In this document: positions 10,002 through 61,602 of the stretch, piece by piece
How the letters are laid out: every line of letters begins with the position of its first letter
Numbering within the stretch: the first letter of the stretch is position 1
Assembly: GCF_021462225.1 (NCBI RefSeq)
Contig: NC_061802.1
Span: forward strand, 9,753,859-9,817,858
From: Girardinichthys multiradiatus
Taxonomy: Eukaryota > Chordata > Actinopteri > Cyprinodontiformes > Goodeidae
Reading direction: 5' to 3'
Length of the DNA stretch: 64,000 nt
The notes under the pieces: generated by a model
What the model was told of the DNA's origin: nothing
The model's database searches: none
Seen by the model: the letters and a program-made list of their open reading frames with translations, nothing else
Translations under genes and position numbers: made by a program

Positions 10002-12544
10002 AGAATCAGAATCAGAATCAGAATCAGAAAAGCTTTATTGCCAAGTACGTTTTTGGACATACAAGGAATTTGTTTTGGCGTAGTCGGTGCAATACAGTAC
10101 AAATTAAACAGTACAAACATATCTACAATATAATATAAATATAAGTGCACAGTTTTAAGTGAGTGAGAGTAAATATAGAGCAGTATAAGATGCAAGAGCA
10201 ATACAACAGTGCAGATGATCATTGTGCAAGTAAAGCAGGAGTCCAAGCTGAGCGTTAATGTAACGCATAGAGTTACAGGTTACAGGTGTCCTGTCAGCAA
10301 AAAAAGGGGGGGTGTGGGGGAAAGGGGGAATGTCAGGGTGGTTTCCGGGCTTTGTTAACCAGGCTGGTGGCAGATGGGAAAAAACTGTTCTTGTGGCGTG
10401 AGGTTTTGGTCCGGATGGACCGCAGCCTCCTGCCAGAGGGGAGAGTCTCAAAGAGTCTGTGACCGGGGTGGGAGGGATCAGCCAGAATCTTCCCTGCCCG
10501 CTTCAGGGTCCTGGAGGTGTACAGTTCCTGGAGCGACAGTAGACTGCAGCCAATCACCTTCTCAGCAGACCGAATGACACGCTGCAGCCTGCCCTTATCC
10601 TTGGCTGTAGCAGCGGCGTACCAGATGGTGATGGAGGAGGTGAGGATGGACTCAATGATGGCTGTGTAGAAGTGCACCATCATAGTCTTTGGCAGGTTGA
10701 ATTTCTTCAGCTGCCGCAGGAAGAACATCCTCTGCTGGGCTTTCTTGATGAGGGAGCTGATGTTTGGCTCCCACTTGAGATCCTGGGAGATGATAGTTCC
10801 CAGGAAGCGGAAAGATTCCACAGTGTCAATTGTGGAGTCACAGAGGGTGATGGGGGCAGGTGGGGCTGGGTTCTGCCTGAAGTTCACAACCATCTCCACT
10901 GTCTTTAGAGCGTTGAGCTCAAGGCTGTTCTGGCTGCACCAGTCCAACAGATGGTCCACCTCCCATCTGTACGCGGACTCGTCACCATCAGAGATGAGTC
11001 CGATCAGGGTGGTGTCGTCCGCAAACTTCAGAAGCTTGACAGACTGGTGACTGGAGGTGCAGCTGTTGGTGTACAGGGAGAAGAGCAGAGGAGAGAGAAC
11101 ACAGCCTTGGGGGGAACCGGTGCTGATGGTCAGGGAGTCAGAGACGTGCTTCCCCAGCCTCACGCGCTGCTTCCTGTCAGACAGGAAGTCAGTGATCCAC
11201 CTGCAGGTGGAGTCGGGCACACTCAGCTGGGAGAGCTTCTCCTGTAGCAGAACTGGGACGATGGTGTTGAAGGCAGAGCTGAAATCCACAAACAGGATCC
11301 TGGCATAGGTTCCTGTGGAGTCCAGGTGCCGGAGGATGAAGTGAAGGGCTAGGTTGACTGCATCATCTACAGACCTGTTGGCTCTGTAGGCAAACTGCAG
11401 GGGGTCAAGGAGGGGGTCGGTGATGTCTTTGAGGTGTGAGAGCACAAGGCGCTCAAAGGACTTCATCACCACAGAGGTCAGGGCGACGGGTCTGAAGTCA
11501 TTAAGCCCTGTGGTCCTTGGCTTCTTGGGAACAGGGACGATGGTGGAGGACTTGAAGCAGGCTGGCACATGACATGTCTCCAGTGAGGTGTTAAAAATGT
11601 CTGTGAAGACTGGAGACAGCTGATCAGCGCAGTGCTTCAGGCTGGCTGGTGAGACAGAATCCGGACCAGCAGCTTTCCGGGGGTTCTGTCTCCTGAAGAG
11701 TTTGTTGACGTCCCTCTCCTGGATGGAAAGAGCCGTCCTCGGCGTGGGTAGGGGGCTGGTGGGGGTTGGAGGTGCCAAGGCCCCTCTTGAGGTTGGGGAG
11801 GTGGGGGTGGTGGATTGTGGCTGCAGCTGTTGGGGGGCGTCGTGGGAGATGGTTGCAGGACTGTCCCTTTGTCTATCAAAGCGGCAGTAGAACTCGTTCA
11901 GGTCGTTGGCGAGGCGTCGGTCGTTGATGGAGTGGGGGGCTTTCGGCTTGTAGTTGGTGATTTGCTTGAGCCCTTTCCAGACAGACGCAGAGTCGTTGGC
12001 TGAGAACTGGATTTGGAGCTTCTCAGAGTACAGTCGTTTGGCCTCTTTCACTGCCTTGCCAAACTTGTACTTAGCCTCTCTGTATATGTCTTTGTCCCCA
12101 CTCCTGAAGGCCTCTTCCTTATCCAGTCTTAACCTTCTGAGTTTAGCTGTGAACCAGGGTTTGTCGTTGTTGTAACTCACCCTGGTGCATGATGGTACAC
12201 AGCTGTCCTCACAGAAGCTGATGTAGGAAGTCACAGCCTCTGTGTACTCGTCCAGACTGTTGGTAGTAGTCCTGAACACATCCCAGTCTGTACAGCCTAA
12301 ACACGCCTGGAGATTCTCCACAGCCTCACTGCTCCACTTCCTTGTCGTCCTCACAACAGGTTTGCAGAGCTTTAGTTTCTGCCTGTATGCAGGAATCAGG
12401 TGGACCATGATGTGGTCGGATTGGCCCAGTGCAGCACGTGGGACGGCATGATAAGCGTCTCTGATGGTGGTGTAACAGTGATCCAGAATGTTGTCCTCTC
12501 TAGTCGGACATTTTATAAACTGTCTGTATTTGGGAAGTTCGTGT
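10002..12544 (-). mobile_element. Rex1-like LINE, 5' truncated, (TTCTGA)n tail
   Basis: On the minus strand the element ends in a (TTCTGA)n tail (plus-strand CAGAATCAGAAT repeats at 10001-10028) and has its 5' end at 12544, part-way through the endonuclease domain. Flanking Tc1 sequence resumes directly on both sides with no clear target duplication. Phrases around the FSSAFNTI box and the FFLRQLKKF region correspond to the sites of the standard Rex1 primers. Rex1 assignment is from motif resemblance; the wider Jockey/CR1/L2 group is certain. A short copy of the same tail occurs at 24152-24240. Confidence 0.85.
10333..12544 (-). CDS. Rex1-like LINE endonuclease (C-term) and reverse transcriptase, partial
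   Basis: The open frame runs without a stop from the 5' truncation to 10333. It continues upstream into Tc1 sequence, but that part is chance. It starts inside the apurinic endonuclease domain ([24 protein letters not shown]). It then carries the linker with a YNNDKPWFT motif and a full reverse transcriptase: [61 protein letters not shown] and the catalytic [10 protein letters not shown]. The thumb region follows and the stop is at 10333-10335. A proline/threonine-rich stretch lies between endonuclease and RT. The protein lacks its N-terminal endonuclease half, so it could not complete target-primed insertion by itself. Confidence 0.88.
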
Positions 12545-12568
12545 AAATAATCATGTACAGTTATGCAC

Positions 12569-13573
12569 TCAATACTTGGTCGGGAATCCTTTTGCAGAAA
12601 TGACTGCTTCAATGCGGCGTGGCATGGAGGCAATCAGCCTGTGGCACTGCTGAGGTCTTATGGAGGCCCAGGATGCTTCGATAGCGGCCTTTAGCTCATC
12701 CAGAGTGTTGGGTCTTGAGTCTCTCAACGTTCTCTTCACAATATCCCACAGATTCTCTATGGGGTTCAGGTCAGGAGAGTTGGCAGGCCAATTGAGCACA
12801 GTGATACCATGGTCAGTAAACCATTTACCAGTGGTTTTGGCACTGTGAGCAGGTGCCAGGTCGTGCTGAAAAATGAAATCTTCATCTCCATAAAGCTTTT
12901 CAGCAGATGGAAGCATGAAGTGCTCCAAAATCTCCTGATAGCTAGCTGCATTGACCCTGCCCTTGATAAAACACAGTGGACCAACACCAGCAGCTGACAC
13001 GGCACCCCAGACCATCACTGACTGTAGGTACTTGACACTGGACTTCTGGCATTTTGGCATTTCCTTCTCCCCAGTCTTCCTCCAGACTCTGGCACCTTGA
13101 TTTCCGAATGACATGCAGAATTTGCTTTCATCCGAAAAAAGTACTTTGGACCACTGAGCAACAGTCCAGTGCTGCTTCTCTGTAGCCCAGGTCAGGCGCT
13201 TCTGCCGCTGTTTCTGGTTCAAAAGTGGCCTGACCTGGGGAATGCGGCACCTGTAGCCCATTTCCTGCACACGCCTGTGCACGGTGGCTCTGGATGTTTC
13301 TACTCCAGACTCAGTCCACTGCTTCCGCACGTCCCCCAAGGTCTGGAATCGGCCCTTCTCCACAATCTTCCTCAGGGTCCGGTCACCTCTTCTCGTTGTG
13401 CAGCGTTTTCTGCCACACCTTTTCCTTCCCACAGACTTCCCACTGAGGTGCCTTGATACAGCACTCTGGGAACAGCCTATTCGTTCCGAAATTTCTTTCT
13501 GTGTCTTACCCTCTTGCTTGAGGGTGTCAATAGTGGCCTTCTGGACAGCAGTCAGGTCGGCAGTCTTACCCAT
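12569..13573 (-). CDS. Tc1/mariner transposase, DD34E, intact
   Basis: This 334-residue protein is a full-length Tc1-family transposase, a nuclear enzyme that cuts and pastes its own element at TA sites. The ATG at 13573 sits just inside the right arm. Residues about 8-48 form the first helix-turn-helix (QKEISERIGCSQSAVSRHL). A basic linker with RKRCGRKRC follows, then a second DNA-binding helix set up to about residue 110. The catalytic triad is D148 (LFSDESKF), D238 (FQHDLAPAH) and E273 (NPIENLW), with 34 residues between the last two. No stop or frameshift is present. The stop codon is at 12569-12571, about 25 bp from the LINE insertion. Whether it is transcribed cannot be told. Confidence 0.93.
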   Translation of the reverse strand: MGKTADLTAVQKATIDTLKQEGKTQKEISERIGCSQSAVSRHLSGKSVGRKRCGRKRCTTRRGDRTLRKIVEKGRFQTLGDVRKQWTESGVETSRATVHRRVQEMGYRCRIPQVRPLLNQKQRQKRLTWATEKQHWTVAQWSKVLFSDESKFCMSFGNQGARVWRKTGEKEMPKCQKSSVKYLQSVMVWGAVSAAGVGPLCFIKGRVNAASYQEILEHFMLPSAEKLYGDEDFIFQHDLAPAHSAKTTGKWFTDHGITVLNWPANSPDLNPIENLWDIVKRTLRDSRPNTLDELKAAIEASWASIRPQQCHRLIASMPRRIEAVISAKGFPTKY

Positions 13574-24929: not shown

Positions 24930-26556
24930 CAGTACAGACCGAAAGTTTGGACACACCTTCTCATTTAAAGAGTTTTCCTTATTTTCATGACTATGAATAT
25001 TGTAGCTTCACACTGAAGGCATCAAAACTATGAATTAACACATGTGGAATTATATACTGAACAAAAAAGTGTGAAACAACTGAAAATATGTCTTATATTC
25101 TAGGTTCTTCAAAGTAGCCACCTTTTGCTTTGATTACTGCTCCGCACACTCTTGGCATTCTGTTGATGAGCTTCAAGAGGTAGTCACCTGAAATGGTTTT
25201 CACTTCACAGGTGTGCCCTGTCAGGTTTAATAAGTGGGATTTCAAGCCTTATAAATGGGGTTGGGACCATCAGTTGTGTTGTGAAGGAGGTGGATACAGT
25301 ACACAGCTGATAGTCCTACTGAATAGACTGTTAGAATTTGTATTATGGCAAGAAAAAAGCATCTAAGTAAAGAAAAACGAGTGGCCATCATTACTTTAAG
25401 AAATGAAGGTCAGTCAGTCCGAACAATTGGGAAAACTTTGAAAGTGTCCCCAAGTGCAGTCGCAAAAACCATCAAGCGCTACAAAGAAACTGGCTCACAT
25501 GAGGACCGCCCCAGGAAAAGAAGACCAAGAGTCACCTCTGCTGCAGATGATAAGTTCATCCGAGTCACCAGACTCAGAAATCGCAGGTTAACAGCAGCTC
25601 AGATTAGAGAACAGGTCAATGCCACACAGAGTTCTAGCAGCAGACACATCTCTAGAACAACTGTTAAGAGGAGACTGTGTGAATCAGGCCTTCATGGTAA
25701 AATAGCTGCTAGAAAACCACTGCTGAGGACAGGCAACAAGCAGAAGAGACTTGTTTGGGCTAAAGAACACAAGGAATGGACATTAGACCAGTGGAAATCT
25801 TTGCTTTGGTCTGATGAGTCCAAGTTTGAGATCTTTGGTTCCAACCACCGTGTCTTTGTGCGGCGCAGAAGAGGTAAACAGATGGACTCTACATGCCTGG
25901 TTCCCACCGTGAAGCATGGAGGAGGAGGTATGATGGTGTGGGGTTGCTTTGCTGGTGACACTGTTGGGGATTTATTCAAAAGTGAAGACATACTGAACCA
26001 GCTTGGCTACCACAGCATCTTGCAGCGGCATGCTATTCCATCCAGTTTGCGTTTAGTTGGACCATCATTTATTTTTCAACAGGACAATGACCCCAAACAC
26101 ACCTCCAGGCTCTGTAAGGGCTATTTGACCAAGAAGGAGAGTGATGGGGTGCTGCGCCAGATGACCTGGCCTCCACAGTCAACGGACCCTGAACCCAATC
26201 GAGATGGTTTGGGGTGAGCTGAACCACAGAGTGAAGGCAAAAGGGCCAACAAGTGCTAAGCATCTCACTCCTTCAAGACTGTTGGAAAACCATTTCAGGT
26301 GACTACCTCTTGAAGCTCATCAACAGAATGCCAAGAGTGTGCGGAGCAGTAATCAAAGCAAAAGGTGGCTACTTTGAAGAACCTAGAATATAAGACATAT
26401 TTTCAGTTGTTTCACATTTTTTTGTTCTTTATATAATTCCACATGTGTTAATTCATAGTTTTGATGCCTTCAGTGTGAAGCTACAATATTCATAGTCATG
26501 AAAATAAAGAAAACTCTTTGAATGAGAAGGTATGTCCAAACCTTTGGTCTGTACTG
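24930..26556 (+). mobile_element. Tc1-like transposon with 272-bp inverted repeats
   Basis: Terminal CAGTACAGACC at 24930 and its complement ending at 26556 are each flanked by TA (24928-24929 and 26557-26558). The two inverted repeats, 24930-25201 and 26285-26556, are both 272 bases and nearly identical. The right one covers the last ~36 codons of the transposase gene, so the left arm holds an antisense copy of that coding end. The transposase (25345-26393) is frameshifted. Both ends are intact, so the copy could still move if transposase came from elsewhere. Confidence 0.92.
25345..26393 (+). pseudogene. Tc1 transposase, frameshifted near the C-terminus
   Basis: The ATG at 25345 opens a 290-residue frame. 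Its parts are an N-terminal helix-turn-helix (TIGKTLKVSPSAVAKTIKRY), a GRPR-like basic hinge (EDRPRKRRPR), the second DNA-binding domain, and catalytic D's in LLWSDESKFEIF and FIFQQDNDPKHTS. After QSTDPEPNR the frame ends at 26217. The expected NPIE motif, carrying the third acidic residue, lies in another frame (about 26187-26200). A second shift follows around 26270, and the true C-terminus ending in EEPRI with its stop is at 26391-26393. The catalytic glutamate is thus lost from the main frame. Confidence 0.88.
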
Positions 26557-33352: not shown

Positions 33353-34360
33353 ATGAGGACAAAAATATGGAGGCACGTGATGTCGCCCGGTACGGCAGAG
33401 CCGGGGTCCCACCCTGGAGCCAGGCCTGGGGTCGGGACTCGCTGGAGAGCGCCTGGTGGCCGGGTCGCTCCTCGAGGGACCCGGCCGGGCCAAGCCCGAA
33501 CGAGAGACGCGAGGCCATCCCCCAGTGGGCCCATCATCTGCAGGGAGAACCGTGAGGGACCGGTGCAAAGAGGATTGGGCGGCGGACAAAGGTGGAGACC
33601 TCAGCGGCCCGATCCCCGGATGCTTAGGTTGGCTCTAGGGACGTGGAATGTCACCTCGCTGGGGGGGAAGGAGCCTGAGCTTGTGCGGGAGGTCGAGAGA
33701 TATCGACTAGAAATAGTCGGGCTCGCCTCCCTGCACAGCGTGGGTTCTGGAACCCATTACCTTGAGAGGGGCTGGACTCTCTTCTACTCTGGAGTGGCCC
33801 ACGGGGAGAGGCGGCGGGCTGGTGTGGGTTTGCTTGTTGCCCCCCAGCTCAGCCGTCTCATGTTGGGGTTTACCCCAGTGGATGAGAGGGTCGTATCCCT
33901 GCGCCTTTGGGTTGGGGATAGGTCTCTGACTGTCGTCTCGGCCTACAGGCCGAGTGGTAGTGCGGAGTACCCGGCCTTCTTGGCGTCCCTGTCGGGGGTG
34001 CTGGATAGTGCCCCTCCTGGGGACTCCATTATTCTGCTGGGGGACTTCAACGCCCACGTGGGAAACGACAGTGACACCTGGAGAGGCGTGATTGGGAGGA
34101 ATGGCCTCCCCGATCTGAATCCGAGTGGTGTTTTGTTATTGGACTTCTGTGCTAGTCACGGATTGTCCATAATGAACACCAAGTTCAAACATAAGGGTGT
34201 CCATCAGTGCACTTGGCACCAGGACACCCTAGGCAGAAGGTCGATGATCGACTTTGTTGTCGTATCATCAGACCTTCGGCCGCATGTTTTGGACAATCAG
34301 GTGAAGAGAGGGGCTGAGCTGTCCACTGATCACCACCTGGTGGTGAGTTGGATCCGCTAG
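33353..34360 (+). CDS. Rex3 N-terminal region and apurinic endonuclease, prematurely stopped
   Basis: The ATG at 33353 opens a 335-residue frame. The first ~90 residues are arginine/glycine/proline-rich, a reading of the GC-rich 5' region that may not be protein in the active element. From about residue 95 the endonuclease fold is visible: [39 protein letters not shown] (metal-binding and catalytic D/N), [14 protein letters not shown] and the closing [14 protein letters not shown] at 34358-34360 ends the frame, but homology continues directly (RRKPDRLGRPKH, then VFNSHLRESFDQIP and GNPRTRWWTP) to the LTR insertion at 34641. The enzyme would nick target DNA to prime reverse transcription; this copy is dead. 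Confidence 0.85.
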
Positions 34361-34641
34361 AGGAGGAGAAAGCCGGACAGACTTGGCAGGCCCAAGCACA
34401 TAGTGAGGGTCTGCTGGGAACACCTGGCGGAGCCCTCGGCCAGGGATGTATTCAACTCCCACCTCCGGGAGAGCTTTGACCAGATCCCGGGGGATGTTGG
34501 AGACATAGAGTCCGAGTGGACCAAGTTCTCCACATCTATTGTTGATGCTGCTGCCCGTAGCTGCGGCCATAAGGTTTGCAGTGCCTGTCGCGGCGGCAAT
34601 CCCAGAACCCGGTGGTGGACACCGGCAGTAAGGGATGCTGT

Positions 34642-35068
34642 TGTGATGGAAATTCTTGCAGTAGGCATTCCACAATGTATGACCTTTGGTTTACCTCACT
34701 CCAGTGAACATCTGTGTTAGAGGAGGAAGCTGTAAAAGCCATTATCAGAAGTTTAATGGTTAAGGGCATTTGTTAGGGTGATGCCTCGGGGAGAGTAGAT
34801 GGTTGTTCCTAGGTAACCTTCTCACCTATGAACCCGAGAAGGGTCTGGGGTCATAAAACACAGACTCTTTGAAGTTGAGATAACACCGTCATGTTCTGGT
34901 ATAAATATTGTGTGTAAATGTTGTTCGGGGCTCTGTTTCACTGACTAACCTCAGTGTCAGGGTCTTCAAACGCTGAATGCCTTTGAATAAAACTTATAAA
35001 GACAAAGTCCGGATTTTCTCTTGTTATGAGTCACCTTCTACCCACTTTGATAAGAAAATTCCACAACA
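34642..35068 (+). mobile_element. Solo LTR, 427 bp, inside Rex3
   Basis: It interrupts the Rex3 ORF between WTPAVRDAV and KLKKESYQ. It begins TGTGATGGAA, ends TTCCACAACA, and is flanked by a 4-bp duplication CTGT (34638-34641 and 35069-35072). It carries a TATA-like TATAAATATTG at about 34901 and a poly(A) signal AATAAAACTT at about 34986. A 4-bp duplication and these signals fit an LTR of an endogenous retrovirus-like or related element. No internal genes remain. Confidence 0.8.
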
Positions 35069-36953
35069 CTGTCAAGCTGAAGAAGGAGTCCTATCAGCTG
35101 TGGTTGGCTTGTGGGACTCCTGAGGCGGCTGACTGGTACCGTGAGGCCAAGCATGCTGCGGCCTGGGCTGTGGCAGAGGCAAAAACTCAGACCTGGGAGG
35201 AGTTCGGTGAGGCCATGGAGAAGGACTACCGGTTGGCCTCGAAGCGATTCTGGCAAACCGTCTGGCACCTCAGGAGGGGGAAGCAGTGCTTCGCCAACAC
35301 TGTTTACAGTGGGGGTGGGAGGCTGCTGACCTCAACTGAGGACATTATCGGGCGGTGGAAGGAGTACTTCGAGGATCTTCTCAATCCTGCCATCACGCAT
35401 TCCGTGGTGGAAACAGAGGCTGGGGACTCGGGGCTGGACTCTTTCATCACCCAGGCTGAAGTCACCGAGGTGGTTAAAAAGCTCCACGGTGGCAAGGCTT
35501 TGGGGGTGGATGAGATCCGCCCTGAGTACCTCAAGTCTGTGGATGTTGTTGGGCTGTCATGGTTGACACGCCTCTTCAACATTGCGTGGCGGATGGGGAC
35601 AGTGCCTCTGGACTGGCAGACTGGGGTGGTGGTCCCCATTCATAAGAAGGGGGACCGGAGGGTGTGTTCCAACTACAGGGTTACACTCCTCAGCCTCCCT
35701 GGTAAGGCCTACACCAGGGTATTGGAGAGGAGAGTCTGGCCAATAGTCGAACCTCGACTTCAGGAGGAGCAGTGTGATTTTTGTCCCGGCCGTGGAACAC
35801 TGGGCCAGCTCTATACCCTCTACAGGGTGCTCGAGGGTCCATGGGAGTTTGCCCTACCGGTTCACATGTGTTTTGTGGACCTGGAGAAGGCATTCGACTG
35901 TGTCCTTCGTGATGCCCAGTGAGGGGTGCTCCAGGAGTATGGAATCGGGGTCCCTTTATTAGGGGCCATCCGGTCCCTGTACAAGCGGAGCAGGAGTTTG
36001 GTCCGCATTGCCGGCACTAAGTCGGACCTGTTTCCGGTGCATGTTGGACTCCGGCAGGGCTGCCCTTTGTCACCGGTCCTGTTCATAACTTTTATGGACA
36101 GGATTTCTAGACGCAGCGAAGGGCTGGAGGGGTCTGGTTTGGGGACCAGTGGATTTCGTCTCTTCTTTTTGCAGATGACGTGGTCCTGCTGGCCCCCTCT
36201 AGCCAAGACCTACAGCATGCGCTGGGGAAGTTCGCAGCTGAGTGTGAAGCGGCTGGGATGAAGATCAGCTCCTCCAAGTCCGAGGCCATGGTTCTCGACC
36301 GGAAAAGGGTGGCTTGTCCTCTTCAGGTTGGAGGGGAGTTCCTGCCTCAAGTGGAGGAGTTTAAGTATCTCGGGGTCTTGTTCACGAGTGGGGGAAAAAT
36401 GGAGCGGGAGATCGACAGACGGATCGGTGCGGCTGCCACAGTAATGGGGGCGCTGTGCCGGTCCATTGTGGTGAAGAGAGAGATGAGCCGAAAAGCAAAG
36501 CTCTCAATTTACCGGTCGGTCTACGTTCCTACCCTCACCTATGGCCATGAACTTTGGGTCATGACCGAAAGAACGAGATCCCAGATAAAAGCGGCTGAAA
36601 TGAGCTTCCTCCGTAGGGCGGCCGGGCACTCCCTTAGAGATAGGGTGAGGAGCTCGGCCATCCGGGAGGGGCTTGGATTAGAGCCGCTGCTCCTCCACAT
36701 CGAGAGGAGCCAGTTGAGGTGGCTCGGACATCTATACCGGATGCCTCCTGGACGCCTTCCTCGGGAGGTGTTCCAGGCACGTCCCACCGGGAGGAGGCCC
36801 AGGGGACGGCCCAGGACACGCTGGAGGGACTATGTCTCTCGTCTGGCCTGGGAACGCCTTGGGCTCCACCCTGAGGAGCTGGAGGAGGTGTCTGGGGAGA
36901 GGGACGTCTGGGCGTCTCTGCTGAGTCTGCTGCCCCCGCGACCCGGTCCCTGA
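35069..36953 (+). pseudogene. Rex3 reverse transcriptase, stop and frameshift
   Basis: After the LTR insertion the Rex3 frame resumes at VKLKKESYQLWLACGTPEAA (35072 on). The RT domain contains GGKALGVDEIRPEYLK, WQTGVVVPIHKKGD and SNYRVTLLSLPGKAYTRVLE, then EEQCDFCPGRGTLGQLYTL and CFVDLEKAFDCV (first catalytic aspartate). A TGA at 35920-35922 interrupts the latter region. The frame continues through GLRQGCPLSPVLF. The FADD box has been shifted: around 36160-36180 it reads FFLQMTW in one frame, and the third frame resumes at VVLLAPSSQDLQHALG. The C-terminal part (FKYLGVLFTSGG to WASLLSLLPPRPGP, stop at 36951-36953) is intact. Confidence 0.88.
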
Positions 36954-50740: not shown

Positions 50741-52701
50741 TTATGAGGGTTTCCTCAAAGAGCCGTTGTAGATGCTGATGGCTGTGGGCAGGAAGGGTCT
50801 CCTGTAGCGCTCAGTCTTACAGCAGATCTGAAGAAGCCTCTGACTGAAGACACTCTGTTGTTGTAGGACAGTCTCATGAAGAGGATGCTCAGGGTTCTCC
50901 ATAATGTTCTTCATTTTATGAAGAATCCTTCTTTCCACAATGATCTCCAGAGGTTTCAGAAGAGTCCCCAGAACAGAACCAGCCTTTTTTATCTGCTTGT
51001 TGAGCTTTTTTAAGTCCCTGGCTCTGATGCTGCTTCCCCAGCAGATGATGACAGAAGAGATCATACTCTCCACAACAGACTTATAGAAAATATGCAGCAT
51101 CTTGCTGCAAACACCAAAGGACCTAAGCTTCCTCAAGAAGTACAGTCTGCTCTGTCCCTTCTTGTAGATGGCTTCACAGTTGCATCTCCACTCTAGTCTG
51201 TTGTCCAGGTGAACACCGAGGTATTTATACTCCTCCACCACCTCCACTTCTTCTCCCATGATAGAAATAGTTTTTGACTTATTCCTGTTTCTCTTAAAAT
51301 CTACAATCATCTCCTTTGTTTTAGTCACGTTCAAAATGAGATGATTGTTTCCACACCATGCCACAAAGTGGTCCACCACCTTCCTGTACTCAGCTTCTTG
51401 TCCATCTCTGATCCACCCCACGACTGCAGAATCATCCGAGTATTTCTGCAGATGACAGGAGTCTGTCTTGTACTGGAAGTCTGAGGTGTACAGAGTGAAA
51501 AGGAATGGTGAGAGTACAGTCACCTGTGGTGCTCCTGTGCTGCTGACTACCTGGTTAGACTCACAACCTGTGGTCTGTTTGTCAGGTAGTCTTTGATCCA
51601 GGAGATGGTTGAGGCCTCCACCTGAGTCTTCTGGAGTTTCTGACAAAGCAAATCAGGTTGGATTTTATTAAATGCACTGGAGAAATCAAAGAACATGATC
51701 CTCACAGGGCTGCTGGCTTTGTCCAGATGACAGTGGGTTTGTTGAAGCAGGTGTATGATGGCATCTTCAACTCCAACTCCACAGCGATAAGCAAACTGAA
51801 GGGGATCCTGATGGTTTACTGTTTGCTTACTCAGGTGGGCCAACAGGAGTCTCTCTAGGACCTTCATGATGTGAGATGTCAGGGCAACAGGTCTATAGTC
51901 ATTGAGGACTGATGGGTGAGTTTTCTTTGGTACCAGAATAAGACAGGAGGTCTTCCACAACACCGGAACCTTCTTCTGGGCCAGGCTAAGGTTGAAGAGG
52001 TGCTGCAGAATGCCACAGAGCTGCTCTGCACAGCCCTTCAGGACTCTAGGGCCGACATGATCTGGACCTGCAGCCTTATTCCGATTCAGTCTCTCCAGTT
52101 GCATCTTCACTTGACTTCTTGAGACACACAGGTGGAAGGGGGAAGCAAAGGAAGCATCAGCATCTTCTGATATGGTTGAAGGCAAACATGTAGAAGCAGA
52201 ATGGTCTAGGTCTGAGGTGGAAGATAAAACATATGAGGTGTTACTGGACAGCTGTGGGTCCTGTGGGCCAAAGGAAGGTGGAATGTCTGTTTGGCTGTGA
52301 GCAGGAGAGGAGGATGCGAAGCTTGTTTCTGAACTGAACCTATTGAAGAATGTGTTCATTTCATTGGCTCTGTCCAAACATCCATTGGTCTGATCATCCT
52401 TCTGCTTGAAGCTTGTGATCTTCTTCATCCCTGTCCACACATCCAGTCATATCAGTCGCAATGCTCGATGGGATATGTAGGAGCGGGCTGTCCTGGGTAC
52501 AAAATGGCCGATGCCATTGGAGGGGCACAGTGACGTCCAACAACGGGCAGATAATCCAATACTCAGCAAACAAGTGGTCCAACAAGTTGCTTCTGTATAC
52601 TCCTCAATAATTCTCTGTCTCCCTCCCTGAAGGCTCTTTTTTTCTTGTTAAGCAGGTCCTTCAGGTCACTGGTGATCCAAGGTTTGTTATTGGGGAAGCA
52701 T
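50741..52701 (-). pseudogene. Rex1-like LINE reverse transcriptase half
   Basis: The frame continues from the copia junction with NNKPWITSDLKDLLNKKKRA, passes an unrelated-looking block and reaches VWTGMKKITSFKQKDD. The RT has NKAAGPDHVGPRVLKGC, NDYRPVALTSHIM, LQFAYRCGVGVEDA and MFFDFSSAFNKIQP up to about 51565. A frame change there puts the rest in the frame ending at 50741: TGAPQVTVLSPFLFTLY, KYSDDSAVVGW (YSDD where FADD is usual), VTKTKEMIVDF, YKYLGVHLDNRLEW, then RRPFLPTAISIYN. The replacement of FA by YS before the DD pair and APQVTV for APQGCV suggest decay of the active site. Confidence 0.83.
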
Positions 52702-52706
52702 CTCAC

Positions 52707-52884
52707 TGTTAGTCAAAGAAAACAACTTGTTTATCCTTTCGTAACTTTATTCCGCCATGAGCATTCCTCCAGAACAACTCCGACACCGCTACCTCCAGTA
52801 GCTCCACCTTCACACCCTCCCCACAACCCCCCACAGTGCCCCTAGCGGATGAACATGTAATATGAACCAAACAAAGGATTAACA
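52707..52884 (-). repeat. Copia 3' LTR, 178 bp
   Basis: It is identical to the LTR at 57232-57409 at 177 of 178 positions by eye. The near identity of LTRs, which are copies of one another at insertion, points to recent integration. Confidence 0.95.
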
Positions 52885-52900
52885 ATCTCCCACCTTTTCT
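52885..52900 (-). other. Copia polypurine tract
   Basis: The minus strand reads AGAAAAGGTGGGAGAT immediately before the 3' LTR. It is purine-rich apart from two T's and ideally placed to prime second-strand synthesis. Confidence 0.75.
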
Positions 52901-53031
52901 AAAAAAAAAAAACAAACAAAACAAAAACAAAGATACATAAATTTTTAAGACTCATGAGAAAACACAGCCGTTAAAGATCTTTGTTAGAACAGTTTCAACC
53001 TGATAGAATGTGAAACATCTTGTGAATGAAT

Positions 53032-53760
53032 TTATTGAATTTTCCAAAGGCCTTCATAAAGAGCCTTAAGAAGTGAGGTTGTGGATGCTCCCTTCTTTGT
53101 TAAGCAGTCTGCAAGTTGGTCTTTTGTTTGAGACCACAACACTTGATGAACTCTCTTAGTTTGAATCAGCTCTTTAATTGAACTGATTTCCAGCCGTAAC
53201 CTTTTCTCTGCAACAGACTTAGTTGACTTAAGTGCATCAACAAGAGAGAAATTATCAGTCACACAGATTATAGGTGGAGGACATGCAGTACTACCAGTAC
53301 TGAGTTCAGAAAAGAGTGTGGAAAGAAAAATGGCATTATCAATCCCCTCAGACATAGCAAGTGTTTCACCTGCCAGAGTGCTTCTGACAATTCTCTTAAT
53401 TCTCTTTGACTGCCATGAAATGGGAGAGAACTGCCCATTGTCACCCATCAAAACAATGAAGTGCCTGCCTTGAGTGCCCCCATCTGAAAGATTTCCAAAA
53501 GATGCATCAGTAAATGTAACCATCTTTAAGTTACTGTCTTCCCCAATATGTTGAAAATTCAATTCAACTGACTTGGCCTTGAGCTTACACACAACTCTGT
53601 TTGCTTCATTAATGGTCTGTACTGTAGCATGTTTGAGACGAGATGCTAAATTACTAGCATCAAACATGACATCAGGCCTGCTCTGTCTCGCCACCCACAG
53701 AAGTTGGACTATCTTAGATCTGAGCTGCTCTGTCTTCTTTTCGGTGAGAGGTGAAGCTGA
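53032..53760 (-). CDS. Copia RNase H and C-terminus
   Basis: The third frame begins meaningfully at ASPLTEKKTEQLRSKI and carries LLWVARQSRPDVMFDASNLA, the connection region. RNase H follows with VTFTDASFGN (D125), STLAGETLAMSEG (E172) and ICVTDNFSLV (D209), numbered in the 282-residue frame, and then QVLWSQTKDQLADCLTKKGA, the standard C-terminal copia motif. The stop is at 53032-53034. The upstream part of this open frame (to 53880) is out-of-frame reading. Confidence 0.9.
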   Translation of the reverse strand, partial: SASPLTEKKTEQLRSKIVQLLWVARQSRPDVMFDASNLASRLKHATVQTINEANRVVCKLKAKSVELNFQHIGEDSNLKMVTFTDASFGNLSDGGTQGRHFIVLMGDNGQFSPISWQSKRIKRIVRSTLAGETLAMSEGIDNAIFLSTLFSELSTGSTACPPPIICVTDNFSLVDALKSTKSVAEKRLRLEISSIKELIQTKRVHQVLWSQTKDQLADCLTKKGASTTSLLKALYEGLWKIQ

Positions 53761-55290
53761 CTCGTGAGGGTGAGAGGTGTATGGACTCCAAGTGCTGAAT
53801 GTATGTTTCTTGGTGTATTTGTACCTTCTTACCTTCAGTGACAAGATAGGAAAAGTTATTATGTACTTCACGACCGACATTAAACTTTGACCTCAGGTGA
53901 GGTATGACTGACTCTGAAAACATGTGTGATCCACCCCATATAAAATCATCAACATGACAAGCAAGTACACCAGTTACATTTTTTAGCTCATCCAGCCAAT
54001 AGAAAACTGCAGGATCAACCTTAGACATAATGCCTCCTGCTTCAATCATGATGCTTTTTACCCTGTAATACCAATACAGTGAAGCCACAGCTAAACCATA
54101 CACACATTTCTTTAGTTTCCAAAGCACACCTGTGCTCTTGGCCTCTGGAGGAGGTTTGATAAAAATGTCTCTGGACAGTTGCATTCCTTGTAAAAAGGCA
54201 GATTTAATGTCCATAGAGTGAAGTTCCCAATGTTTTTGACATATAACTGCCACTAGGAGTCTCAGTGACTCTGAGGCACAGGTTGGAGAGTCCTTTTGTA
54301 TGTCAGAAACTTGTAGCTCCTCAAATCCTCGTGCAACAAGTCTTGTTTTAGGTATTATACCATTTTCAGTTTCTTTCAGAGTGCACACCCAACGAGTGGA
54401 GACACACTTTTGTCCTTTGTCCTTAATTTCTTCAAACACTTGGTTTTGTTTCCAGCTTATTATTTCATTTTTCTTTGCTTCATCAAACGACATGTCGTTA
54501 CTCACAAAAACATCCTCGTGTGTATCCATATCCTCAGCATCTGCCTGGACTTGAAAATCCTCCAACTGTGACATATCAGCTGATTCACTGTTGCCAGCCA
54601 CTTCTGCCGGCTCCAACAGCTCCAAGTTAAACCAGTTCTTGTATTTCCCAGTTGCTTTGCCGGCACGCCCCAACACTTTAGCTTTTGGTGAGACACCCTC
54701 TGCATTTCTGAATGTCACAATTTGACCTGTCTTTATGATGGTGTTCCCAGTGTGCTGTCTCTCTGCCTCTGCATTTACAGGAGCAGGCAAAGGATGATTC
54801 TCAGGATTTACTGCAATAGTCTCTTCTCCTACATTCTCTTGAATGATGTCCACTGTATGTTGTCCTTGAATGTTCTCCTCATTGCAGGCAATTTGAGGTT
54901 CTTCATTCTCGTGAGTAACTTTTCTCAATCTGAGTTGATGCACTCTGACACAGGTGCCTCCGTGTCTAACAAAAACGACTGCACCATCTTGACCAATCAC
55001 CACTCCTGGTCCTTTCCATTCAGGACAATCCACTCTTTTGTAAAAGACTTTGTCTCCAGTTTCATATCGCTCGTCTATGGGTCGCAGCTGCTTCTTTAGT
55101 GCTCTGCGTATCCTTTCTGAACATTCCGCTTCTGTAAAAGCCTTTCTTGCAGCATGCAGGGCTGAAATATGCTTGGCAATCCACTCGCTCTTGGTGGTGC
55201 CCTCTAGAGCTGGAGCTTTGTCTATTAATACAGAGGGTAGGTTGGGATTCTGCCCGAACAACAGCTGATGTGGGCTGTATCCATGAACAC
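53760..55290 (-). CDS. Copia integrase C-terminus and reverse transcriptase
   Basis: The second frame picks up the integrase at VHGYSPHQLLFGQNPNLPS, continues with the C-terminal nucleic-acid-binding part (YETGDKVFYKRVDCPEWKGP) and an acidic linker. The reverse transcriptase follows: QVFEEIKDKGQKCVSTRWV, KTRLVARGFEE, the first catalytic aspartate in SMDIKSAFLQG (residue 378 of the 542-residue frame), WKLKKCVYGLAVASLYWY and the catalytic HVDDFIWGG (D465, D466). The frame reads to LSPSR near 53760, where another shift occurs. All RT catalytic residues are present. Confidence 0.92.
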
Positions 55291-57218
55291 TGCATAGAGT
55301 TCTTTGCCATAAGGGCCCAGTCCATGGCAATGCTCCAGTCACATCCAGTACTTGCTTTGACTTTCCGTAGGATCTCTGTCAGAGTTTGATTATGGCGCTC
55401 CAACAGTCCATTGCTCCACGGACTGTAAGCAGGTGTTGTCTTAACTTCAATATTAAAGTTCTCGGCCATGTCTCTCACTTCCTCGTTATTAAATTCACCA
55501 CCATTGTCACTGAACAACTTTTGTGGTGGGCCATGTACACTGATCCAATCATGGATAAAACATTTGACTATTTCTGAAGACTTTTTTGTGGTTAAGACAC
55601 TACCAGCACTGAAACGGGTGAACTGGTCAATAATGTGTAGGTACCAAACCCCAGGTTCAAGTTCGTGCAGATCTACAGCAACTGTTTCATTGTATGTAGA
55701 TGCCAACGGTAAGCCGACAGCAGGTTTTGGTTTGGTCTTACAATATCTTTGACACACATCACACTGGTTCACAACCTTTTTCAGTAGGCTGTTGTATTCT
55801 GTGTCCTTGTTACCAGAACCAGTCAAAAGTCTCTGTATTTTATCAGCAGAGACATGTCCAAACTGTTTATGAAGTTTCTCCAGAACTTTCATCTTTTTAT
55901 TTGTGTTCATCTTGTCTGTTATAGTCAGTATTTCTTCCTCAGTAGCTTCTAATAGCTTATCAGAGTGAATAACATTTCTATTTTCACTGTCCACAATGTT
56001 CAGGCAGTAATGACCTGAGCTAGTAAAGTCCAGTTTGACAGGCTGGTTGAACATCACTGCACTGTCCCTTTCCATGTCCAAAACGGTCCCTGCCCTTTTT
56101 AATGAGGTTTTACTCAGAAGCAGCGGGATGTCAGCCGGTACTACTTCAGTTTCTATATTACACTTTGTGTTGCCAATTTTAGCAGGTATCTTTACCTTTT
56201 TTATGGAGTAGACGATTTTTCCATCTCCAAACTTGAAGGGCCTGTGACTCTGTATTTCTGTCTCTTTCATACTCTTCACACTTTTCTTTTGTAATACAGT
56301 ACTGTAGTTGTCCAGCCACTCTTGTCCACAAACTGTCCTAGTGCAAGCAGTGTCAATTATTGCCGAGCCAAAACATTCTGTCATGAATATTTCGGCATCT
56401 GTTGGTGATTCTTTGGTGTACAGAGTTAAATTGCACTCTTCCACGTCTTTTGTATCATCAGCAATTTTAACACTATCAGCTTTGTGCGGACAGTTTTTAA
56501 CCCAGTGAAAAGTACTTTGGCACACTGCACATTTCGACCGTCGTCCGTACTTATCCAGCGGGTTTGTACCGGGCTGCGGTGTGTTGGGCTGTGGAGTTTT
56601 CTGATGGGGACTTTGCCGCCAGTACTTGCCTTTTTGCCGCCATTGCTCCGTTGCAAACACGGACTCCTGTCTAATGCCTTCTCCTGCCGCTCTCTGCTCT
56701 CTTTTTTTGCCAAATATTCTCTTCAAAGCGGACTTCATAGAAGCAAATGTTACATCTGAGCATGCCGTTAAAGCCAGCTGTCTGTCCATCATATCCAAAC
56801 ATGCAGTGTCCAAAAGCGTAAAAGCCAAAACTCCGTCAGGTAGCTCCATGTTGTATTTTTTCATGCGCGAGTAATGCTGCTCGAAATCAATAATATAGTC
56901 CGCCATCGACATGTTAACTTCTTTTATGATTCGATCAAAATCCGAGTACGCCTCATAGATCCTGTCCTTTTCCTCTTTCAGGAACAAGTCATCTAGTTTG
57001 GCGAACAATATAATCATTCCAGTGTCTTTATTTAGGTCGTCTACCAGAATTTCCATCGCCGTGTTCCGCGCTCTTCCAGACAGCGCCAGGGCGACTGCAA
57101 GCGCTTGTTTCTTTTTTTCCAAATCCGTAACTCTCGTCCAAATATTGACTTCATTCTTCCAGCTTTCGTAAGGCTTTCCTTCTTCAAACGTTGGCGGAAC
57201 TCTGTAGTTACTAACCAT
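55290..57218 (-). CDS. Copia gag, protease and integrase
   Basis: The ATG at 57218 opens a single frame. Residues 1-200 form the gag capsid region (SWKNEVNIW, LSGRARNTAMEIL). A CCHC zinc knuckle follows (C230, C233, H238, C243). The protease active site is IIDTACTRTVCG (D289), with DTA in place of the usual DSG/DTG. The integrase zinc-binding domain uses H450, H455, C486 and C489. Its catalytic core has D516, D571 (SDNGGEF) and E607 (GLLERHN), with 35 residues between the last two. The frame is lost near 55290, at MQC, by a one-base change. The stop of the shifted read-through at 55062 is not meaningful. Gag and pol share a frame, as in copia. Confidence 0.93.
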
Positions 57219-57231
57219 CCTCTGCTACCAA
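57216..57231 (-). other. Copia primer binding site, initiator tRNA-Met
   Basis: Directly inside the 5' LTR the minus strand reads TGGTAGCAGAGGATGG, the complement of the 3' end of vertebrate initiator tRNA-Met including CCA. The ATG inside GAGGATGG is the gag start codon, so primer site and first codon overlap. Priming from the tRNA 3' end differs from elements that use an internal tRNA fragment. Confidence 0.85.
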
Positions 57232-57409
57232 TGTTAGTCAAAGAAAACAACTTGTTTATCCTTTCGTAACTTTATTCCGCCATGAGCATTCCTCCAGAAC
57301 AACTCCGACACCGCTACCTCCAGTAGCTCCACTTTCACACCCTCCCCACAACCCCCCACAGTGCCCCTAGCGGATGAACATGTAATATGAACCAAACAAA
57401 GGATTAACA
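57232..57409 (-). repeat. Copia 5' LTR, 178 bp
   Basis: Read on the minus strand it starts TGTTAATCC and ends TTTGACTAACA. It differs from the other LTR at one base (a C/T change in the CTCCAC(C/T)TTCACA phrase). Confidence 0.95.
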
Positions 57410-57414
57410 CTCAC

Positions 57415-58431
57415 GGTTCTGGTGGGGATGATGTTATCCACACAGACGTTTATATAGTCAGTTACACACTCAGTCATGGCATTGATGTCTTCTCCATGTG
57501 GCTGGCACAGTGCGTCCCAGTCTGTAGCCTCAAAGCAACCTTGCAAAGCTTCTTCAGCTTCCTGTGACCATTTTCTCACAGTCCTCTTTATTACAGGTTG
57601 CCTCTGAACAAGGGGCTTATATTTCGAGCAGAGAAAAACAAGATTGTGATCTGATTTGCCTAGAGGAGGTCTTGCTGTAGAGATGTATGAGTCCTTGACA
57701 TTTGCATAAAACAAATCCAATGTTTTGTTTTCTCTGGTAGAGTAGCTAACAAACTGTTGAAATGTTGGAAGTGTAGCAGAGAGTGAAGCATGGTTAAAAT
57801 CACCAGAAATTTCCACAAAAGCATTGGGGTTTTGTGTCTGTAGCTTAGCAACAACTGAGCTGATGGCATCACATGCAGTGTCGGCAACAGCGGAAGGTGG
57901 AACGTCAACTGTTGCCAAAATAACACTGGTGAACTCTCTGGGTAAATAATATGGACGAAAACTTACTGCCAACAGTTCAATATCTGGACTGCAGAGATGA
58001 CACTTCACAGTTACATGTCCTGGATTACACCATCTGTTGTTCACAAGTACTGCCAGTCCACCTCCTTTACATTTGCCGCTCCTCTTTAAATCTCTGTCTG
58101 CTCGTATGGTTAAAAAGCGCGGCACAGAGACGCTGGAGTCTGGGATATGATCCTGCAGCCATGTCTCAGTAAAACACATAGGTACTCTGGCTGGGTCCTT
58201 TGTAGGGCTTGGAGTTCATCCAACTTGTTTCCCAACGATCTCACATTGCCCATCATAATCGACGGAAGACGTTTGAACTTCCTCCTTAGCTCCTGCTCTG
58301 CATCCACGGCGTCTCCTTTTCAACTCATCAGGAATTTGGGGTTGTAGTTGAAGTATTATTTGAGCTTTTGAGATATTAATCAGCTGCTCCCGGTTGTAAG
58401 AAACAACCCCGTTGCCATGGCAATGCATCAT
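57415..58431 (-). pseudogene. Rex1-like LINE endonuclease half
   Basis: The ATG at 58431 opens MMHCHGNGVVSYNREQLINI and reaches IPDELKRRRRGCRAGAK before a frame change. A second frame carries LPSIMMGNVRSLGNKLDELQ, where the endonuclease begins. A further shift near 58180 leads to the main frame, which runs CFTETWLQDHIPDSSV, RADRDLKRSGKCKGGGLAVL, AVSFRPYYLPREF, EISGDFNHASL (catalytic D/N), STRENKTLDLFY and PPLGKSDHNLVFL (closing D-H). It ends at the copia insertion right after DNIIPTRTV. It resumes on the other side at RCFPNNKPWITSDLKDLLN. It is the target-nicking domain of the element and is not translatable as one protein here. Confidence 0.82.
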
Positions 58432-60332: not shown

Positions 60333-61602
60333 CAGGGATTGGAAAATGAAACTGAAACACCTGGTTTTAGACCACAATAATTTATTAGTATGGTGTAGGG
60401 CCTCCTTTTGCGGCCAATACATCGTCAATTCGTCTTGGGTATGACATATACAAGTCCTGCACAGTGGTCAGAGGGATTTTAAGCCATTCTTCTTGCAGGA
60501 TAGTGGCCCGGTCACTACGTGATACTGGTGGAGGAAAACGATTCCTGACTCGCTCCTCCAAAACACCCCAAAATCGCTCAATAATATTTGCTTCTGGTGA
60601 CTGTGCAGGCCATAGGAGATGTTCAACTTCACTTTCATGTTCATCAAACCAATCTTTCACCAGTCTTGCTGTGTGTATTGGTGCGTTGTCATCCTGATAC
60701 ATGGCACCGCCTTCAGGATACAATGTTTGAACCATTGGATGTACATGGTCCTCAAGAATGGTTCGGTAGTCCTTGGCAGTGACGCGCCCGTCTAGCACAA
60801 GTATTGGGCCAAGGGAATGCCATGATATGGCAGCCCAAACCATCACTGATCCACCCCCATTCTTCACTCTGGGCATGCAACAGTCTGGGTGGTATGCTTC
60901 TTTGGGGCTTCTCCACAACGTAACTCTCCCAGATGTGGGGAAAACAGTAAAGGTGGACTCATCAGAGAACAATACATGTTTCACATTGTCCACAGCCCAA
61001 GATTTGCGCTCCTTGCACCATTGAAACCAACGTTTCGCATTGGCATGAGTGACCAAAGGTTTGGCTATACCAGCCCGGCCGTGTATATTGACCCTGTGGA
61101 GCTCCCGACGGACAGTTCTGGTGGAAACAGGAGAGTTGAGGTGCACATTTAATTCTGCTGTGATTTGGGCAGCTGTGGTTTTATGTTTTTTGGATACAAT
61201 CCGGGTTAGCACCCGAACATCCCTTTCAGACAGCTTCCTCTTGCGTCCACAGTTAATCCTGTTGGATGTGGTTCGTCCTTCTTGGTGGTATGCTGACATT
61301 ACCCTGGATACCGTGGCTCTTGATACATCACAAAGACTTGCTGTCTTGGTCACAGATGCGCCAGCAAGACGTGCACCAACAATTTGTCCTCTTTTGAACT
61401 CTGGTATGTCACCCATAATGTTGTGTGCATTTCAATATTTTGAGCAAAACTGTGCTCTTACCCTGCTAATTGAACCTTCACACTCTGCTCTTACTGGTGC
61501 AATGTGCAATCAATGAAGACTGGCTACCAGGCTGGTCCAATTTAGCCATGAAACCTCCCACACTAAAATGACAGGTGTTTCAGTTTCATTGTCCAACCCC
61601 TG
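60333..61602 (-). mobile_element. Tc1/mariner-type transposon, DD36E, intact
   Basis: The 1270-bp unit is flanked by TA (60331-60332 and 61603-61604). The left end starts CAGGGATTGGAAAATGAAAC and the right end, reverse-complemented, CAGGGGTTGGACAATGAAAC; both continue TGAAACACCTG. This gives short inverted repeats of about 31 bases with two mismatches. A single uninterrupted transposase gene fills the interior. Short repeats, an intact gene and intact TA duplication make it the best preserved cut-and-paste element in the window. Confidence 0.93.
60385..61416 (-). CDS. Tc1/mariner transposase, DD36E
   Basis: The 343-residue protein starts at the ATG at 61416 and stops at 60385. Residues 8-45 form a helix-turn-helix (LAGASVTKTASLCDVSRATV), followed by a basic GRKRKLSERD linker. 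A second DNA-binding domain is at residues 66-115 (KTTAAQITAELN, STRTVRREL). The catalytic acids are D152 (VLFSDESTF), D243 (QDDNAPIHT) and E280 (EANIIERFW), with 36 residues between the last two. The glycine box VKNGGGSVMVWAA is complete. DD36E spacing, with EANIIERF instead of the DLNPIEHL of ordinary Tc1, fits the DD36E (Incomer-type) family of animals; that family name is an inference from spacing. The protein looks functional. Confidence 0.92.
   Translation of the reverse strand: MGDIPEFKRGQIVGARLAGASVTKTASLCDVSRATVSRVMSAYHQEGRTTSNRINCGRKRKLSERDVRVLTRIVSKKHKTTAAQITAELNVHLNSPVSTRTVRRELHRVNIHGRAGIAKPLVTHANAKRWFQWCKERKSWAVDNVKHVLFSDESTFTVFPTSGRVTLWRSPKEAYHPDCCMPRVKNGGGSVMVWAAISWHSLGPILVLDGRVTAKDYRTILEDHVHPMVQTLYPEGGAMYQDDNAPIHTARLVKDWFDEHESEVEHLLWPAQSPEANIIERFWGVLEERVRNRFPPPVSRSDRATILQEEWLKIPLTTVQDLYMSYPRRIDDVLAAKGGPTPY

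What the first reader, a model, noticed from the sequence alone, without database searches (positions are those of the whole stretch)
52707..57409. Near-complete Ty1/copia retrotransposon in a vertebrate genome
The sequence shows two 178-bp LTRs with one difference, a 5-bp CTCAC target duplication, primer site, polypurine tract, and PR-IN-RT-RH in copia order with every catalytic residue visible. Copia elements are rare in vertebrates. A copy this young is a good reference for defining a fish lineage and testing whether it is still moving.
Basis: partly seen in the sequence, partly recalled or inferred. Interest (0 to 1): 0.75.

Follow-up and report, generated by a model that had tools for sequence, protein, structure and literature searches.

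The report
Broken fish copia retrotransposon copy
This is a fairly recent but already broken copy of a known kind of jumping gene (a copia LTR retrotransposon of a sort found in fishes) that landed inside another jumping gene in a fish genome; it is mostly ordinary, though its sister copies show odd signs of having swapped or shared sequence.

Summary
On the minus strand, 52707-57409 is a 4.7-kb Ty1/copia element: 178-bp TG...CA LTRs with one difference, perfect CTCAC duplication, tRNA-Met-type primer site, polypurine tract, gag-PR-IN-RT-RH order. It interrupts a LINE whose frame reads through the joined empty site. The host is a jawed vertebrate (RAG1 97% to the livebearer Xiphophorus). The family is native: about 21 loci on 15 contigs (lower bound); 12 LTR-bounded copies were examined. 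Integrase and RT trees group it with every named fish row they hold. GalEa/Zeco1-like is the best label, inferred: no named reference element could be placed.

Corrections. The copy is broken by two private frame changes (integrase, end of RT); 0 of 12 copies keeps the whole frame open. Copia is not scarce here: 149 RVT_2 match pieces, including a second, deeply different clade. "Young" is soft: one LTR difference fits roughly 0.01-6 My under assumed rates, and the variant recurs in other copies.

Unexpected: frameshifts shared among separate insertions, four copies with mismatched LTR pairs, and two copies with unrelated flanks sharing the same 5'/3' LTR differences. Exchange among copies is suggested; trans-mobilisation of broken copies is not excluded.

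The parts
52702..52706 (.). target-site duplication CTCAC (left copy)
52707..52884 (-). 3' LTR, 178 bp, TG...CA
   Evidence: query
52885..52904 (-). polypurine tract next to the 3' LTR
   Evidence: sequence
53032..53880 (-). ORF with end of RT and RNase H (SRPDV, TDASF, AGET, VTDNF, DCLTK)
   Evidence: no Pfam hit but 72.5% over 251 aa to a Coilia fish protein
53714..55342 (-). ORF with end of integrase and reverse transcriptase (RVT_2, HVDD)
55062..57218 (-). ORF with gag (zinc knuckle), protease DTAC, integrase core; its start codon overlaps the primer site
57215..57231 (-). primer binding site, tRNA-Met type
   Evidence: compared with the GalEa primer site printed in PMC3587641; host tRNA not confirmed
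57232..57409 (-). 5' LTR, 178 bp, one difference from the 3' LTR
57410..57414 (.). target-site duplication CTCAC (right copy)
50741..52701 (-). host LINE, reverse-transcriptase side of the interrupted ORF
57415..58179 (-). host LINE, upstream side of the interrupted ORF
   Evidence: frame reads through the joined site and matches the LINE at 10333-12633; no Pfam hit on its own

Best explanation
It is one insertion of a low-copy Ty1/copia LTR retrotransposon family, most likely GalEa/Zeco1-like, in a teleost genome. An RNA made from an LTR promoter was primed by tRNA-Met, copied to DNA and inserted by integrase with a 5-bp stagger into the ORF of a LINE. Shown: end structure, duplication, empty site, domains, copies. 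Inferred from established LTR-retrotransposon biology: transcription, priming, enzyme action. The copy now has two frame changes and cannot make a complete gag-pol. It belongs to a star-like group of about 21 loci, of which the 12 LTR-bounded ones examined are all broken. Some copies appear to have exchanged sequence, most simply by gene conversion.
For: Ends, duplication, primer site, PPT. Domains and motifs. LINE frame reads through the joined flanks. About 21 loci at >=83% protein identity in the same genome (80 of 257 candidates scored); 31 of 41 LTR matches at >=88%. Internal regions of 10 main copies 0.5-1.9% apart. Host RAG1 97% over 97% of the query to Xiphophorus couchianus. IN tree: a clade of the window, 14 named fish rows and 10 unnamed rows, SH-aLRT 99; RT tree: the window, 9 named fish and 17 unnamed, SH-aLRT 98 (quick trees, no bootstrap). 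Careful RT tree: 15-row fish and own-genome clade, 98/94. Bivalve relatives among the hits, while no Hydra-clade element was found in 18 bivalve species (PMC6238403, passages).
Against: No GalEa1, Zeco1 or Hydra1-2 sequence was available, so the clade label is inferred; a hydrozoan and a cephalopod row also fall among the wider relatives, so the trees have no certain Hydra-clade row. LTR ends differ from those printed for two crustacean GalEa elements. The tRNA partner was not confirmed in this genome (pattern search did not complete). The four-gamete test found 42% incompatible site pairs but no clustering by distance (P=0.99), so it does not itself show recombination.
Confidence: 0.88

Rival explanations
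1. The family is Hydra-clade copia or a separate unnamed fish copia lineage rather than GalEa/Zeco1-like.
For: No reference element was in the trees; fish carry both GalEa and Hydra elements (PMC5941688, passages).
Against: A second copia clade in the same genome is only 27-35% identical in RT to its best matches among the retrieved relatives of this family and scores up to 272 bits against RVT_2, against about 107 at most for this family. Bivalve relatives and the GalEa-type primer site point to GalEa.
Confidence: 0.1
2. Broken copies of this family were multiplied in trans by proteins from intact relatives, and copies with two different LTRs were made during reverse transcription.
For: A gag frameshift is shared by 6 of 16 readable copies and an RT frameshift by 4 of 18. 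Four of the six (L011, L012, L013, L015) have intact ends and their own duplications. L012 and L013 share eight indels and the same LTR differences but have unrelated 500-bp flanks.
Against: Normal reverse transcription makes the two LTRs identical (established knowledge), so inherited LTR differences fit DNA-level gene conversion better. The copies sharing the gag frameshift are not clearly a clade by distance. Some shared changes lie in short repeats and could recur.
Confidence: 0.25
3. Contamination or misassembly.
For: None found.
Against: Copies on 15 contigs, with different target duplications; nested in a LINE; nearest named relatives are fish.
Confidence: 0.01

Closest known systems
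GalEa clade, Zeco1-like subclade (Zeco1 of zebrafish, Olco1 of medaka; CoNotoA of Antarctic fish)
   Same: Fish elements forming one group; and, as printed for the crustacean GalEa members CoRex1/CoRex2, short LTRs starting TGTTA, total length under 5 kb, primer site sharing 11 of 12 bases, CX2CX4HX4C gag finger (PMC3587641 and PMC5941688, passages). Structures of Zeco1 itself were not seen.
   Different: LTR ends CTAACA rather than TATCA of CoRex1/2; no sequence comparison to a named member was possible; CoRex1 is printed as two ORFs, while here gag to IN runs in one frame.
Unnamed protein of Knipowitschia caucasica (goby), P0038
   Same: 81% identity over 90% of the gag-to-IN piece; nearest named row in the IN tree. 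An unnamed metagenome protein, P0121, is 84%.
Hydra clade of copia (Hydra1-2 of zebrafish, CoNotoB)
   Same: Also present in fish.
   Different: Not found in 18 bivalve species (PMC6238403, passages), whereas this family has bivalve relatives; the second, very different copia clade of this genome may be it (not tested).

Membership tests
Ty1/copia superfamily | Integrase upstream of RT in pol, RVT_2-type RT | tested here: met
Ty1/copia superfamily | LTRs with TG...CA, tRNA primer site, PPT, short target duplication | tested here: met
GalEa clade (Zeco1-like) | RT/RH phylogeny with GalEa1 and Zeco1 (the criterion used in PMC3587641) | not testable with these tools
GalEa clade (Zeco1-like) | Fish elements monophyletic | tested here: met
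   all 14 named fish rows in the IN tree and all 9 in the RT tree lie in one clade with the window; named fish hits with too little of the domain (such as P0020, P0024, P0156, P0224 for IN; P0038, P0048 for RT) were left out of the respective tree
GalEa clade (Zeco1-like) | Primer site TGGTAGCAGAGC against the tRNA-Met 3' end | tested here: inconclusive
   first 11 of 12 bases shared; host tRNA search not answered
GalEa clade (Zeco1-like) | LTR termini TGTTA...TATCA (printed for CoRex1 and CoRex2; the passages seen do not call it defining for the clade) | tested here: not met
   TGTTA shared, but this LTR ends CTAACA
Hydra clade | RT phylogeny with Hydra1-1/1-2 | not testable with these tools

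The most novel reading that the evidence does not exclude
In this fish, a copia family kept spreading after its copies had lost gag or RT: broken RNAs were packaged and inserted by proteins supplied in trans, and strand transfer between different molecules made insertions whose two LTRs differ from birth, so LTR dating fails for this family.
Probability: 0.17. Interest if true: 0.45.

Novelty: new member of a known kind. Interest (0 to 1): 0.24.

Why it matters
As a copia family it adds one well-delimited member to a fish lineage already described. More useful are the sister copies: a small family whose shared frameshifts, mismatched LTR pairs and mixed 4- and 5-bp duplications can be read copy by copy, suggesting that an age from a single LTR pair can mislead here.

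Tried and rejected
Contamination or misassembly: rejected. 'Copia is scarce here': rejected. Recombination by four-gamete clustering: incompatibility is high (42%) but not structured by distance (P=0.99), so not used as evidence (L013 and L019 left out). LTR clock: observed against expected LTR differences in 9 copies is only weakly over-dispersed (p=0.048; L012, L013 and L019 left out). COX1 gave only one short, stop-bearing fragment on C10, so the host was read from RAG1. tRNA search of the window: none. PDB searches gave mainly retroviral integrases for the first piece, weak unrelated hits for the second and none for the third. No structure was predicted.
Full report
What is there. The feature is real and its limits are exact. 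Read on the minus strand, a 178-bp 5' LTR (57409-57232) is followed by a primer site (TTGGTAGCAGAGGATGG), three ORFs in different frames, a polypurine tract and a 178-bp 3' LTR (52884-52707); both flanks carry CTCAC. The LTRs differ at one base. Pfam finds the integrase core and RVT_2; DTAC, HHCC and D-x54-D-x35-E, HVDD and RNase H residues are visible. Among the 232 proteins retrieved the patterns used matched DTAC in 94 and HVDD in 84 (many rows are fragments), so these spellings are normal for the relatives.

Insertion site. With the two flanks joined and one CTCAC kept, a LINE reading frame runs through the junction and matches a second LINE of the window at 10333-12633 across it (RVT_1 downstream). 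The copia element therefore went into a pre-existing LINE, which itself has stops and frame changes further on. The LINE clade was not determined.

Host. The window lies in a 1.15-Gb genome of 72 contigs. RAG1 is present at 1,278 bits; it rang in none of the 14 control genomes, but the eight of them that are named in the COX1 run are prokaryotes, so this is a weak control for vertebrates. The RAG1 core is 97% identical over 97% of the query to Xiphophorus couchianus, a cyprinodontiform. The 'vertebrate genome' claim is confirmed; the species was not identified.

The family. The LTR matches 41 places, 31 at >=88% identity, one of them a 52-bp piece (40 of 44 candidates scored). The RT piece gives 92 matches; those at >=83% identity fall at about 21 loci on 15 contigs, counting two C18 fragments as one element; 80 of 257 candidates were scored, so this is a lower bound. 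Twelve LTR-bounded copies were examined (window and L009-L019, of which L017 and L018 have a truncated 3' LTR); L020, L021/L022, L026, L027 and L028 were incomplete at an end and left out of the twelve. Internal regions of ten main copies are 0.5-1.9% apart, L015 is 2.7-3.1% from them, and L019, with a divergent LTR, 4.9-5.4%. Stop-free stretches reach 1,091 aa at most, against about 1,395 codons between the first ATG and the last stop of the window copy, so 0 of 12 has the whole frame open. The window copy's two frame changes, near 55.3 kb and 53.8 kb, are private: none of the other 11 copies shares them.

Target duplications, read by eye from the flanks printed: 5 bp in 9, 4 bp in 6 and none in 1 of 16 (the 12 copies, 3 solo LTRs, and L026, whose 5' LTR is cut to 18 bp); L020, L021/L022, L027 and L028 were not counted. 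In the 4-bp cases the repeats are offset in a way that one substitution in a 5-bp repeat would not give, though L026 lies in ATAC-rich sequence and may be chance. The stagger may therefore vary between 4 and 5 bp.

Age. One LTR difference gives 0.3-1.1 My for assumed (not measured) rates of 1e-8 to 2.5e-9 per site and year, with Poisson limits of about 0.01-6 My; 27 private changes in 4,347 bases give 0.6-2.5 My at the same rates, an upper bound since some may predate insertion. The letter that distinguishes the window's 5' LTR is also seen in the 3' LTRs of L012, L013 and L016, so it may not be a post-insertion mutation.

Relationships. In quick trees (unnamed rows limited to 45, rows with low domain coverage left out, no bootstrap) the window joins every named fish row in the tree: IN 25 rows, SH-aLRT 99; RT 27 rows, SH-aLRT 98; 10 and 17 of those rows are unnamed. 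Named invertebrate rows (mussels, chiton, nemertean, sea cucumber, abalone, tunicate, hydrozoan and others) fall outside. No named plant or insect row was in the trees. A careful RT tree of 31 rows agrees (15-row clade, 98/94) and shows other own-genome families in the same fish clade. The nearest named relative is a protein of the goby Knipowitschia caucasica, 81% over 90% of the gag-to-IN piece. PMC3587641 (passages) describes fish GalEa elements as one group with Zeco1 and gives, for two crustacean members, LTRs of 133 and 217 bp and the primer site TGGTAGCAGAGC; PMC6238403 (passages) reports GalEa elements widely in molluscs but no Hydra elements in 18 bivalve species. Together these make GalEa/Zeco1-like the best label, inferred rather than tested.

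Second clade. RVT_2 rings at 149 places, several pieces per copy in some cases (150 of 179 candidates scored). The best score up to 272 bits, while this family scores about 107 at most and another family of its lineage 116. Four of the high-scoring places were fetched and are only 27-35% identical to their five best matches among the 232 retrieved relatives. This resembles the two-clade picture (GalEa and Hydra, which could not be reliably aligned) reported for Antarctic fish (PMC5941688, passages), but its clade was not tested.

Anomalies among copies. A gag frameshift is shared by 6 of 16 readable copies, an RT frameshift by 4 of 18, another small gag deletion by 3 of 17. L011, L012, L013 and L016, each with its own 4- or 5-bp duplication, pair a 5' LTR near the main type with a variant 3' LTR (the 5' LTRs of L012 and L013 carry small variants of their own). 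L012 and L013, 745 kb apart with unrelated 500-bp flanks and different duplications, share eight indels relative to the window, differ by 0.5%, and all of L012's 5'-to-3' LTR differences (four substitutions and one gap) recur in L013. Standard reverse transcription makes both LTRs alike, so this points to DNA-level exchange such as gene conversion, reported for plant LTR elements (PMC7251063, abstract). Mobilisation of broken copies in trans would also spread shared frameshifts. Against strong claims: the incompatibility test shows no distance structure, and several shared indels sit in short repeats where they could recur.

Verdict. It is an ordinary, broken member of a known kind of fish copia element, with modestly interesting behaviour among its sister copies.

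Noticed in passing
L012 and L013 (G000 C11, 33.48 and 32.74 Mb): Two copies with different duplications and unrelated flanks share eight indels and the same 5'/3' LTR differences.
   Followed up: partly
L011, L012, L013, L015, L017, L020: Six of 16 readable copies share one gag frameshift.
   Followed up: partly
L026:400-4942: A copy with its 5' LTR cut to 18 bp (still starting TG) and flanked by ATAC on both sides, as if integrated from an incomplete DNA product.
   Followed up: partly
L019, L020: Subfamily whose LTRs are about 72-73% alike to the window's over most of their length but whose internal regions are 90-94% alike; in L019 the middle of the LTR is what differs most.
   Followed up: partly
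L059-L062 and the list: A second, deeply different copia clade (WVDD, TRPD) with many full-length RT matches in this genome.
   Followed up: partly
G000 contigs C24 and C25: RVT_2 and RT matches recur in seven pairs at corresponding positions on C24 and C25, suggesting homologous chromosomes such as a sex-chromosome pair or a retained haplotype.
   Followed up: no
window 12569-13573, 25345-26217, 60385-61416: Tc1/mariner-type transposase ORFs.
   Followed up: no
window 10333-12633 and 33353-36953: Two more LINEs with RT or endonuclease domains.
   Followed up: partly
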